Origin: Lagopus muta
Lineage: Eukaryota > Chordata > Aves > Galliformes > Phasianidae
Assembly: GCF_023343835.1 (NCBI RefSeq)
Contig: NC_064433.1
Coordinates: 184,095,777 to 184,159,776 of the forward strand
Length of the DNA: 64,000 bases
Reading direction: 5' to 3'
This document shows, piece by piece, positions 6,619 to 12,580 of this stretch. Position numbers and translations under genes: made by a program. The notes under the pieces are model-generated. The model saw nothing but the letters and a program-made list of their open reading frames with translations. It was not told the DNA's origin and made no database searches. The stretch's first letter is position 1, and each line of letters opens with the position of its first letter.

Positions 6619-6624
6619 TATGCC
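6619..6624. repeat. Target-site duplication, left copy (TATGCC)
   Basis: TATGCC lies directly outside the left LTR and is repeated directly outside the right LTR (12575-12580). The two copies mark a single integration with a 6-bp staggered cut. Six bases is typical of alpharetroviruses; ERV-L elements usually give five. Confidence 0.95.
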
Positions 6625-6939
6625 TGTATAACCAAGATGTTATAATTGCAATATACTCAAAGGAGTGAGGCAAAGCAAACAAGGATCACAAAAGAGAATA
6701 AGTAGAAGAGCTTACCCTTGGGTTGAGCTCACTAGAAGATATCAAAGAGGAGGATCTCCAGAAGAGATCCTTCCCCTCTGGTAGCCAGCTCTTAAATAGG
6801 TCCAGGAGGGGTGGAGCCTGGCTCCACCCCTTCCGGCAGCACAGGTGAATTGCCTTCACCTGTGCTCCTCTGGCTGACTCATGGCTCACCTCAGGTGATC
6901 AATCAGAGGTTCAGGCCGTGACTCAGCAGTTCCCATACA
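6625..6939 (-). repeat. 3' LTR (315 bp)
   Basis: TG...CA-bounded (plus strand TGTATAACC to CCCATACA) and matching the right LTR base for base by eye. In sense direction U3 carries two AP-1/MARE-like sites (6918-6928 and 6872-6882), three inverted repeats (6886-6898, 6840-6864, 6808-6830) and a TATA-like TATTTAAG (6791-6798). A 7-bp hairpin (6752-6770) sits at the expected RNA start, and a splice donor AAGG|GTAAGC lies at 6716/6715. No AATAAA or ATTAAA polyadenylation signal is visible. A 67-codon open frame (6889-6686) spans U3 to U5; it begins upstream of the TATA box and shows no known domain. Confidence 0.95.
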
Positions 6940-6951
6940 CTCCACCCCTTC
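6940..6951 (-). other. Polypurine tract
   Basis: Sense GAAGGGGTGGAG directly abuts the U3 start (TGTATGGG), the position where plus-strand DNA synthesis is primed in retroviruses. The same 12-mer occurs inside U3 at 6822-6833 and 12457-12468. Confidence 0.85.
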
Positions 6952-7272
6952 ACGGCGTGAACCAATGATCAGGTTAACAAAAGGGTAAGCTTTCCCTAAT
7001 ACAGAGATCCGGTATATCGCGACGCTTATACAATTTTATCGCGACGTATGTTGGTACAGTTCAAGACAAGTGATGATTAGTGGATGTCCATATTCTTCTA
7101 TGGGCCAGTGCTCGATGATGTGCCTGGAGGTATGAAGTCCTGAGGTGCAAGTCCATTCTATGTTCCATCAGTCCCATGCAGACCATCACCGGGTGTTGTA
7201 CGTGATCTGACAGCAACACTGGAACGCTTGATGGCATTTTGTTCCTTCCGGTGGTCCTGAAGGCTCACAGAC
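6952..7272 (-). other. Retroviral 3' noncoding tail, no env
   Basis: The ~320 bases between the pol stop and the polypurine tract contain no open frame resembling an envelope or accessory protein. A CpG-bearing 10-mer (sense CGTCGCGATA) occurs twice, at 7037-7046 and 7015-7024, 22 bases apart. This segment could hold RNA export or packaging signals, but nothing was recognised. Confidence 0.7.
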
Positions 7273-10200
7273 TCACGGGGAGTAATACAGATGTTTTACA
7301 GGTACCAGGAGGGGAAGGTCTGCTCTCCAGGGCAAGATACAGGCCGTATTTCTGTCTTGGGTCAACACTTCCGCTTGTACTGGGGCACGTCCTGGCCGCC
7401 TGTACCACACCTTTTTGCCGGATATCTGCGGCTGCATAACGATATCAGGCACCAAAGGAGGTGTCCTGATCTGCCACAGGGACACGATGGGGGTCCCTTT
7501 AGCAATAAAGATCGGAGTGTTGACCATAATATCAGTAGGCCATGTACCTATTACTGGAGGGACTACTGAGCCTCCCACCTCCAATAGTCTCCCCCAAGGT
7601 GCAAGTAGGCCACACCACTTGGGTCCTACCTGCACCTTCCAGGGCCATTTTATTTTATGGGTACCTGGCTCTAAGTTTTCAGGGGCAGGGAGCAGAAGAT
7701 TATTTTCATTACCAATTTGGGGTCTTACCTGATGATCAGTGCCCGTAATTTGGATCCTAAGCGGGGTGGCCCATGTCGTCTGCAACATTCTCAGGGCACT
7801 GGGTCTGCCATCTCGAGGTCTTTCATTCAGGTCCCGCAGGGTTTCATACAGTCTTTTTGTCCACCCCTGCAAGGACTGGGAGTCTGTCTTCAGGGCAGCC
7901 TTAAGAATACCATTATAACGTTCAATGAGGCCTGCCCCTGTTGGATTATATGGCAGGTGGAATCGCCATTCGATGTTATTTTCTTCTGCCCAGCGCTGTA
8001 TCGTTGCACCAGTAAAATGAGTCCCTTGGTCGCTCTCGATGACTTGAGGTGTCCCGTAGGCAGACATCAGTTTAGTGAGTGCCTTGATGGTATATGCCTG
8101 GTTTGCTTTCGGTACTGGATAGGCCTGCAGTAGCCCACTTGCAGTGTCGACACAGGTCAGGGCATATCTTGCCCCTTCGGAACGAGGAAGGGGCCCGATG
8201 TAATCGACCTGCCATCGCTGGAGAGGATTGTGTCCCCTAGCAAGATGGGCTGTTGTTTCGGGCAACGATCTCGGTCTCATCTTGGAGCAAGCGTCGCAAT
8301 CCTGGCATGCCTGGACGATATCAGATAGTTGTATGGGCAGTCCCCATGCTTTAGCAGCTGCCCACATTGTCTTTTGTCCAGCATGCCGTAGCTTCTGATG
8401 TAACCAGCGGGCGATGTTCTCAGATGGTGAATTCTCAATCCATCGAACTCGGGCCAATGTGTCGGCTTCATCGTTTCCCGGTGACTGTAGGGGCTGATGA
8501 CCAGAAACATGGTAGACACGTACAGTCCTGTGTTTGACCGTATTCCATATATCTAACCACATGTCTTTGCCCCAGATCGGTCGGGCGTGGATAGTCCATT
8601 CCTGGGTGTCCCACTGTGCAATCCAGAGAGTGAGCCCCCGGTACACAGCCCAACTATCTGTGCAGATGTTCAGGATACCATCACCGGGTTCCTTGGTTAT
8701 AACCATCCACACGGCTCGCAGTTCTGCCCATTGGCTGCTCTGGCCATCCCCCTCATCAAACCAGATTGTCTCGGTGGAAGGATGGTATGCTATTGCTCTC
8801 CACTTGCTCGGGTTGCCCTTGCTGGACCCATCTGTGTAGCAGGCATCTTCAGGGATAGGATATTTTCCCTCCTGAACGGGACTCTTCTCTGGTGGAGCGA
8901 CCAGTATTTCTTTTGGTGCATCACTGTGATACGTAACTGGGCCTAGGATCTTCTGAAGTTCTTCTTTCAAGGGGGATGAAGACAGACTGCTCCTTTGGCT
9001 GAGATAGGCGACCCATCGTGCCACTGTTTGTGCTTGGGCCACCCCTGTCTTAGGAAGGTGGGTCAGATCCTTCACCCACCCCTGAATTGGCAGAGTGGTC
9101 TTAACTATAACTGCAGCTGTCTGAGTTATTGGCTCTACTGCCTGTAATGCCGAATAGGCAGCCAATAACTGTTTTTCAATCATACTGTATCTTTCTTCTG
9201 CTCCGTGCCAAACCTGAGACCAGAAACCAATGGGGGTCCGAACAGAACTCTGGCGCTGCCACAGGCCCCAACCGAAGCCGTCTTGAGTAACATGAACGTC
9301 CAACTCGGCTGGGAGGGTAGGATCGAATATACCCAATGCCTGAGCTTGTTTAACTGCCAGTTTTGCTTGTTGGAAAGCATCCTGTTCGGTTTTCCCCCAG
9401 TCCCATAGCTGCCCCTTTTTTGTGAGTCTGTATAGTGGCCTTAGCAGCTGCGCTAGGTGAGGTATAAAGGAACGCCAATAACCCAATATACCTAGAAACT
9501 CTTGCAGCTGCTTTGATGTTGTAGGGACTGGGAATGCCTGAACCTTATCTATAACAGCACTGGGTAGCACTTTGGTCTTTCCTGACCAAACCACCCCCAG
9601 GAATTTTACGGACAGGCCTGGACCTTGCACCTTTTGGGGATTTATAGCCCATCCCCTTTGTTGCAAATAGGCACTTAATGAATCAGCTGCCTGTCCTACT
9701 ACCTCCAGTGAGTCGGATGTCAACAGGAGATCATCAATATAATGATATAGGTTAACATCATCAGGTTTTCTCCAGTCAGCCAGGTCACGCGCCACTAAAT
9801 TGTGACAATATGTTGGTGAATGCACGTACCCCTGTGGCAGGACCTGAAAGGTCCACTGCCTGCCTCCCCACGTAAACGCAAACTGATCTTGCGATTCCTC
9901 AGCAATTGGGATACTGAAGAATGCATTTGCTAGATCTAGGACACAATGATAGGTTTTTATCTCCCTACTCAATGTGTCCATTAGGGAAGCAATATTGGGT
10001 ACGGCCGCATGAATAGGCGGCGTGACCTTATTTAATTCTCTGTAATCTACTGTCATCCTCCATGTGCCATCCGACTTTCGCACTGGCCATATGGGGGAGT
10101 TATACGGGCTGTGTGCAGGTCTTATAATGCCCACTTTTTCTAATTCCTGCACCGTTCTCGATATTTCATCTTGCCCACCCGGGAGTCTATACTGTCTAAC

Positions 10201-12386: not shown

Positions 12387-12433
12387 GGATCTCCAGAAGA
12401 GATCCTTCCCCTCTGGTAGCCAGCTCTTAAATA
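12387..12433 (-). promoter_or_regulatory. 5' LTR core promoter and RNA-start hairpin
   Basis: The sense TATTTAAG at 12426-12433 is the only TATA-like element in the LTR. About 25-30 bases downstream lies a perfect 7-bp inverted repeat (GGATCTC...GAGATCC, 12387-12405), which would sit at the very 5' end of the RNA. The exact start site cannot be read from sequence. Confidence 0.6.
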
Positions 12434-12506
12434 GGTCCAGGAGGGGTGGAGCCTGGCTCCACCCCTTCCGGCAGCACAGGTGAATTGCCTTCACCTGTGC
12501 TCCTCT

Positions 12507-12563
12507 GGCTGACTCATGGCTCACCTCAGGTGATCAATCAGAGGTTCAGGCCGTGACTCAGCA
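12507..12563 (-). promoter_or_regulatory. Two AP-1/MARE-like sites in U3
   Basis: Sense TGCTGAGTCAC (12553-12563) fits the NF-E2/Maf-type consensus TGCTGAGTCAY. ATGAGTCAGCC (12507-12517) is a near-perfect site in the opposite orientation. Both contain the TGAGTCA core. The same pair occurs in the 3' LTR (6918-6928, 6872-6882). Use by bZIP factors is inference. Confidence 0.55.
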
Positions 12564-12574
12564 GTTCCCATACA

Positions 12575-12580
12575 TATGCC
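12575..12580. repeat. Target-site duplication, right copy (TATGCC)
   Basis: Direct copy of 6619-6624, immediately outside the 5' LTR. Confidence 0.95.

What the first reader, a model, noticed from the sequence alone, without database searches (positions are those of the whole stretch)
6619..12580. Structurally complete, very recent ERV inserted sense-oriented in CEP295 intron 2
Seen: both 315-bp LTRs look identical, target duplications are perfect, and gag and pro-pol are open with all key polymerase, RNase H and integrase residues. With an assumed neutral rate near 2e-9 per site per year, one LTR difference is expected per ~0.8 million years, so the insertion is probably young and may be polymorphic. 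Sense-orientation intronic proviruses are usually depleted by selection, so an intact one in an early intron of a centrosome gene is notable.
Basis: partly seen in the sequence, partly recalled or inferred. Interest (0 to 1): 0.8.

Follow-up and report, generated by a model that had tools for sequence, protein, structure and literature searches.

The report
Young envelope-less retrovirus in gamebird CEP295
A recently inserted, envelope-less endogenous retrovirus sits in an early intron of the centrosome gene CEP295 in what is probably a gamebird, and it is one of at least forty almost identical copies in that genome, so it looks like a normal product of a recently active family rather than a singular oddity.

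Summary
A 5,950-bp provirus lies at 6625-12574 on the minus strand. Its 315-bp LTRs are identical (0/315), the 6-bp target duplication is perfect, gag and pro-pol are open with their catalytic residues, and it is sense-oriented between coding exons 2 and 3 of CEP295. Qualifications: there is no env; gag and pro-pol are offset by -1 without a canonical slippery site, as in 4 of 4 other copies checked; a domain after integrase looks like a dead dUTPase. The host genome holds at least 40 RT copies at 99-100% identity. Of 37 LTR pairs measured, 23 are identical, so identity is common among near copies. Target duplications are 5 bp in 42 insertions, 6 bp in 10 (this one included), absent in 2. Traits and the RT tree favour class III (ERV-L-like). 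Anatomy matches the published chicken family GGERV10, but sequences could not be compared. The nearest pol relatives found outside gamebirds are in mole, bat, armadillo and colugo. Polymorphism and any effect on CEP295 were not tested.

The parts
6619..6624 (.). target-site duplication copy, TATGCC (3' side of the provirus)
6625..6939 (-). 3' LTR, 315 bp, TGT...ACA
   Evidence: identical to the other LTR, 315/315
6940..6960 (-). polypurine tract region ending AAGGGGTGGAG next to the 3' LTR
   Evidence: AGGGGTGGAG also precedes the 3' LTRs printed
6940..7272 (-). about 330-nt stretch between pol stop and 3' LTR; stops in all three frames, no env
7273..10695 (-). pro-pol open frame (protease, RT, tether, RNase H, integrase)
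7276..7764 (-). dUTPase-like domain after integrase with catalytic motifs lost (approximate bounds)
   Evidence: hhalign probability 87, score 37.7; best of 100 column shuffles 19.65; Pfam alone finds nothing
10650..10695 (-). 46-nt gag/pro-pol overlap, -1 frame, no X XXY YYZ heptamer in the gag frame
10600..10652 (-). gag stop UGA followed by two stem-loops (lowest 2.2% of 60-nt windows in the provirus)
   Evidence: z only -1.32 for a 141-nt piece
10650..12221 (-). gag, 523 aa, no zinc knuckle, MHR-like QKPRESVPAWLLR
12222..12259 (-). 38-nt leader with primer binding site TGGCGAGCCAGGCAGG two bases after the LTR; resembles tRNA-Arg(ACG), tRNA recalled and not tested
12260..12574 (-). 5' LTR, 315 bp, with one copy of a 52-bp U5 unit (other copies carry 1-3 units)
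12575..12580 (.). target-site duplication copy, TATGCC (5' side)
12845..13060 (-). CEP295 coding exon 2 (codons matched); donor gtaagt follows at 12844, 270 bp before the provirus
   Evidence: probe recalled
5587..5727 (-). CEP295 coding exon 3 (codons matched)
   Evidence: probe recalled
15057..15167 (-). CEP295 first coding exon with ATG
   Evidence: probe recalled

Best explanation
[quoted passage not shown] It spreads inside the germline by copy and paste: LTR-driven RNA, Gag particles, reverse transcription primed by a host tRNA (probably tRNA-Arg), and integration that duplicates 5 or, less often, 6 bp of target. Shown: intact parts, identical LTRs, at least 40 near-identical relatives in the same genome, many identical LTR pairs. 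Inferred: that this copy or its siblings are still able to move, the tRNA primer, the env-less intracellular route, and that the CEP295 insertion is near neutral. How Pro-Pol is translated from a -1 frame without a canonical slippery site is open; I favour recoding near the gag stop aided by the stem-loops that follow it.
For: LTR identity and target duplication. Intact ORFs and catalytic residues. 40 full-length LTR matches at 99-100% and 40 RT matches at 99-100%; only 40 candidates were scored each time, of 2,108 and 379. LTR pairs: 31 of 35 asked were resolved, plus 5 others and the window: 37 pairs, 23 with 0 differences, 7 with 1, 7 with 2-8. Target duplications: 42 of 5 bp, 10 of 6 bp, 2 without, among 54 insertions. 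CpG retained inside the provirus. Class III marks: TGT...ACA ends, YIDD, no zinc finger (given as class III or ERV-L traits in PMC8278194 and PMC1224870, sections and passages seen), a dUTPase-like tail after integrase, and an RT tree beside dUTPase-bearing elements.
Against: Phmmer against the PDB scores RT highest against 8wus and kin (2e-44; gammaretroviral, label partly recalled) and lower against 7ksf/7kse (1e-34; foamy, label recalled), so class I is not excluded by that measure; integrase is closest to PFV integrase. No named ERV-L or GGERV reference sequence was available for the tree. Transposition itself was not observed. The copies measured were picked for closeness to this one, so old members of the family are under-sampled. 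LTR gene conversion or assembly collapse could mimic youth at one locus, less easily across 37 pairs.
Confidence: 0.87

Rival explanations
1. It is an old insertion whose LTRs were homogenised by gene conversion or by assembly collapse.
For: LTR identity alone cannot exclude conversion, and the LTR holds only 2 CpGs in 315 bp (0 of 1,001 internal windows are that low), so its clock may run slowly.
Against: Both ORFs intact, high internal CpG, RT 99-100% identical to 39 other loci, and 23 of 37 pairs identical across many contigs.
Confidence: 0.04
2. It is a class I (gamma-like) ERV rather than class III.
For: RT scores highest against gammaretroviral RT in the PDB; MHR-like motif in gag.
Against: No zinc knuckle in gag, YIDD and TGT/ACA termini, dUTPase-like tail after integrase, best PDB integrase is PFV, RT nested among dUTPase-bearing elements, gag and pol in different frames.
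Confidence: 0.08
3. The insertion is functionally important for CEP295, as an alternative promoter, cryptic splice source or hypomorphic allele.
For: Sense orientation; several sense donors in the provirus score above the CEP295 exon 2 donor (6.9, 6.6, 5.7, 5.0 against 4.4; matrix recalled); the provirus makes up about 5.96 of 7.1 kb of the intron.
Against: Antisense donors reach 5.9, so the sense donors are not exceptional. No poly(A) hexamer of 13 tested in the sense LTR. No expression data.
Confidence: 0.12

Closest known systems
GGERV10, chicken (PMC2329609, Findings section 3, part 1 of 2, read)
   Same: Youngest chicken family in that paper; LTR pairs identical or 1 bp apart; gag ORF about 1,600 bp; pol ORF about 3,300 bp with protease, RT, RNase H, integrase; chicken ERV LTRs about 200-350 bp. 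Here gag 1,572 bp, pol frame 3,423 bp, LTR 315 bp.
   Different: Host not established. Sequence identity to GGERV10 could not be tested because no repeat library is held.
MuERV-L / ERV-L (PMC5930517 and PMC1224870, passages seen)
   Same: env-less; no zinc finger (stated for HERV-L); dUTPase position after integrase; 5-bp target duplication typical.
   Different: dUTPase-like domain here lacks catalytic motifs; tRNA-Arg-like instead of tRNA-Leu primer site; 6-bp duplications in 10 of 52 readable insertions.
XtERV-S, Xenopus tropicalis (PMC8278194, sections 7-8 and passages read)
   Same: Class III gag-pol, YIDD, TGT/ACA LTR ends, no zinc finger, identical LTRs; an X. tropicalis pol protein (P0130, possibly this element, not shown) is 52% identical in RT.
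   Different: XtERV-S has an env and 705-bp LTRs, and gag and pol share a frame across a TGA.
Unnamed pol proteins of Phasianus (P0002), Tympanuchus (P0003) and an unnamed ENA cluster of 525 sequences (P0129)
   Same: RT 95%, 84% and 87% identical.
   Different: Only proteins seen; no flanks, LTRs or dates.
Unnamed mammalian pol relatives: Talpa (P0010), Hipposideros (P0091), Dasypus (P0143), Galeopterus (P0151)
   Same: RT 67, 57, 55 and 51% identical over the aligned part; join the gamebird copies at 100/100 support.
   Different: Fragmentary except Talpa (RT 67, RNase H 59, integrase 50%); no mammal among the 7 gag hits.

Membership tests
Class III ERV (ERV-L-like) | No zinc knuckle in Gag | tested here: met
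   no CCHC and no C..C; PMC1224870 gives this trait for HERV-L and spumaviruses
Class III ERV (ERV-L-like) | RT active site YIDD | tested here: met
   PMC8278194 calls it typical of ERV-L but not foamy viruses
Class III ERV (ERV-L-like) | LTR termini TGT...ACA | tested here: met
   trait from PMC8278194
Class III ERV (ERV-L-like) | dUTPase C-terminal of integrase | tested here: inconclusive
   colinear dUTPase-like domain by profile comparison, catalytic motifs absent, Pfam finds none
Class III ERV (ERV-L-like) | 5-bp target duplication | tested here: inconclusive
   this locus 6 bp; family 5 bp in 42 and 6 bp in 10 of 52 readable
Class III ERV (ERV-L-like) | RT phylogeny with named ERV-L | tested here: inconclusive
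   nests among dUTPase-bearing pol proteins; no named ERV-L reference in the tree
GGERV10 | gag about 1.6 kb, pol about 3.3 kb, LTR pairs 0-1 bp apart | tested here: met
   against PMC2329609 for this locus; 7 of the 37 pairs in this genome differ by 2-8
GGERV10 | nucleotide identity to the GGERV10 sequence | not testable with these tools
   no repeat library or named chicken genome held
Gammaretrovirus-like class I ERV | gag and pol in one frame separated by a stop | tested here: not met
   -1 frame in this and 4 of 4 other copies
Gammaretrovirus-like class I ERV | one or two gag zinc knuckles | tested here: not met
Spumavirus | env present, no MHR | tested here: not met
   no env; MHR-like motif in gag

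The most novel reading that the evidence does not exclude
The family belongs to a class III lineage shared by gamebirds and several placental mammals but not by the other bird ERVs sampled. That would mean cross-class transmission by an infectious ancestor, followed by loss of env and death of the dUTPase, and then a still-running burst of intracellular copying in gamebirds with a loose 5/6-bp integration stagger and an unconventional way of making Pol.
Probability: 0.3. Interest if true: 0.55.

Novelty: new member of a known kind. Interest (0 to 1): 0.3.

Why it matters
The locus documents a retroelement family, probably of gamebirds, that was moving very recently and may still be, so its insertions, including this one in CEP295, are likely to segregate and could serve as population markers. 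The family also offers testable puzzles: Pol expression without a canonical frameshift site, a dead dUTPase kept at the end of Pol, and a close pol lineage shared with mammals.

Tried and rejected
The RT scan of viral contigs found no relative. Rfam found nothing at gathering scores and three weak hits below them taken as chance. Spuma-like expression of Pol from an own start was considered: the first in-frame Met lies 3 residues before the protease DTG and would cut off the stretch that I take for the protease's first strand, so it was set aside. Splice-site ranking gave a best sense donor of 6.9 against 5.9 antisense, too close to build on. A 6-bp duplication as a family trait was my first reading; some searches showed 5 bp is the rule. 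One search listed three insertions without duplication; one search showed that one of them (C38) had been cut short by the script and has 6 bp.
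Full report
OBSERVATION. The element spans 6625-12574 (5,950 bp) on the minus strand, inside the stated coordinates, which include both target duplications. The two LTRs are 315 bp and identical, and identity stops at both ends exactly. TATGCC flanks it on both sides. Gag is 523 aa from ATG 12221 to stop 10650, and the pro-pol frame is open from 10695 to 7273. Pfam shows protease, RT, tether, RNase H and integrase; the catalytic residues are present (by eye). No env: about 330 nt remain after pol, with stops in all three frames.

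SETTING. CR1 3' ends (13 matches, 0.06 expected; pattern recalled) mark a bird. The host assembly is 1.027 Gb, with the window at C1:184095777-184159776. Of 7 gag relatives, 2 carry a host name, both gamebirds (Numida, Centrocercus), and 5 carry none. The closest named pol proteins are from Phasianus (95% in RT) and Tympanuchus (84%). A gamebird host is therefore inferred; the species is not established. CEP295 exons (recalled human probe) place the provirus between coding exons 2 and 3, same strand. The donor of exon 2 is at 12844, so the provirus lies 270 bp into an intron of about 7.1 kb that was about 1.2 kb before.

FAMILY IN THE GENOME. The LTR search returned 40 full-length matches at 99-100% and one 52-bp piece (40 of 2,108 candidates scored). 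An RT piece returned 40 matches at 99-100% (40 of 379 scored). Both are lower bounds and lean to the nearest copies. Of the 39 RT loci other than the window, 4 had been measured from the LTR set and 35 were asked. One search resolved 31 and failed on 4 (C11:33.17M, C2:20.63M, C59:42.79M, C57:1.05M). With those 4, one internally shortened copy (C59:47.14M) and the window, 37 LTR pairs are known: 23 with no difference, 7 with one, 7 with two to eight. The window and the five pairs were compared over 315 bp only; those over 281 to 367 bp.

TARGET DUPLICATIONS. 42 insertions show 5 bp, 10 show 6 bp (this locus among them) and 2 show none (C1:75.39M, C27:5.61M): 37 pairs and 17 solo LTRs. Four LTRs whose partner was not resolved (L014, L025, L034, L037) were left out. 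One of the 5-bp cases is a run of G. The integrase stagger is thus mostly 5 bp with a recurrent 6-bp class.

LTR. U5 ends in a 52-bp unit that occurs once here, twice in the 367-bp form, and three times in the 419-bp 3' LTR at C38; a 344-bp form also exists. The LTR has only 2 CpGs, while no internal 315-bp window has fewer than 3 (0 of 1,001 at 2 or less). None of 13 poly(A) hexamers occurs in the sense LTR; four AATAAA and two ATTAAA occur in the internal part; where the RNA ends is unknown.

GAG-POL JUNCTION. The frames overlap by 46 nt at -1. None of the 15 gag-frame heptamers listed around the overlap is X XXY YYZ; three such heptamers occur elsewhere in gag, outside the overlap. The gag stop UGA is followed at once by two stem-loops, in the lowest 2.2% of 60-nt windows of the provirus, though a 141-nt fold is not exceptional (z -1.32). 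The arrangement is unchanged and without indels in 4 of 4 other full-length copies (0, 3, 0 and 1 differences in 181 nt), so it is a family trait.

CLASSIFICATION. Lack of a zinc knuckle, YIDD and TGT/ACA ends are class III traits according to PMC1224870 and PMC8278194 (passages and sections seen). After integrase lies a domain colinear with dUTPase of related elements but without its catalytic residues (motifs recalled): hhalign score 37.7, probability 87, against a maximum of 19.65 in 100 column shuffles. Pfam alone does not see it. PDB searches give RT nearest to gammaretroviruses and integrase nearest to PFV (some virus labels recalled). In the RT tree of 31 rows the gamebird copies and one unnamed cluster each join Talpa, Hipposideros, Dasypus and Galeopterus at 100/100. 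Holding gamebird copies together with Corvus, Patagioenas and Amazona copies is rejected (AU p 0.005; the group was named after a first tree). Rows were chosen by me from the 120 of 317 hits shown and the 113 hits. The armadillo and colugo rows are under half filled. Absence in other birds was not searched in genomes.

AGE. The CpG-poor LTR may slow this clock. Intact ORFs and CpG observed/expected of 0.49 against 0.20-0.23 in host flanks agree with youth; one CR1-like stretch in the window reaches 0.57, so CpG alone proves little.

KNOWN RELATIVES. GGERV10 of chicken (PMC2329609, Findings part 1 of 2 read) has the same anatomy and 0-1 bp LTR differences. GGERVL18LTR insertions shared by two Gallus species are reported in PMC2169234 (passages seen). 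A search for CEP295 with endogenous retrovirus gave 1 paper, on human testis (listing and start of abstract seen). No listing or 80 names this locus; only asked for the gene, and the library holds open-licence papers only.

VERDICT. Nothing shows an effect on CEP295.

Noticed in passing
window 20230-21480 (+): CR1-type ORF of 416 codons with an RVT_1 match; inverted arms 13949-14403 and 20843-21297 are 86% complementary.
   Followed up: no
window 43000-44000: CpG island (GC 0.70, CpG observed/expected 1.06) with strand skews to its right suggesting a plus-strand gene; not TAF1D, MED17 or C11orf54 by recalled probes.
   Followed up: partly
window 17180-18450: CR1-like stretch with CpG observed/expected 0.57, as high as the provirus, perhaps a younger copy.
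   Followed up: no
P0128 (Centrocercus LRRC2 model): A predicted LRRC2 protein carries a stretch 74% identical to this Gag over 18% of it, probably a gene-model fusion.
   Followed up: no
G000 C57:6264672-6270621 and C38 near 428589: Two proviruses whose 5' LTR has one 52-bp U5 unit (315 bp) while the 3' LTR has two or three, unexpected for one reverse-transcription product.
   Followed up: partly
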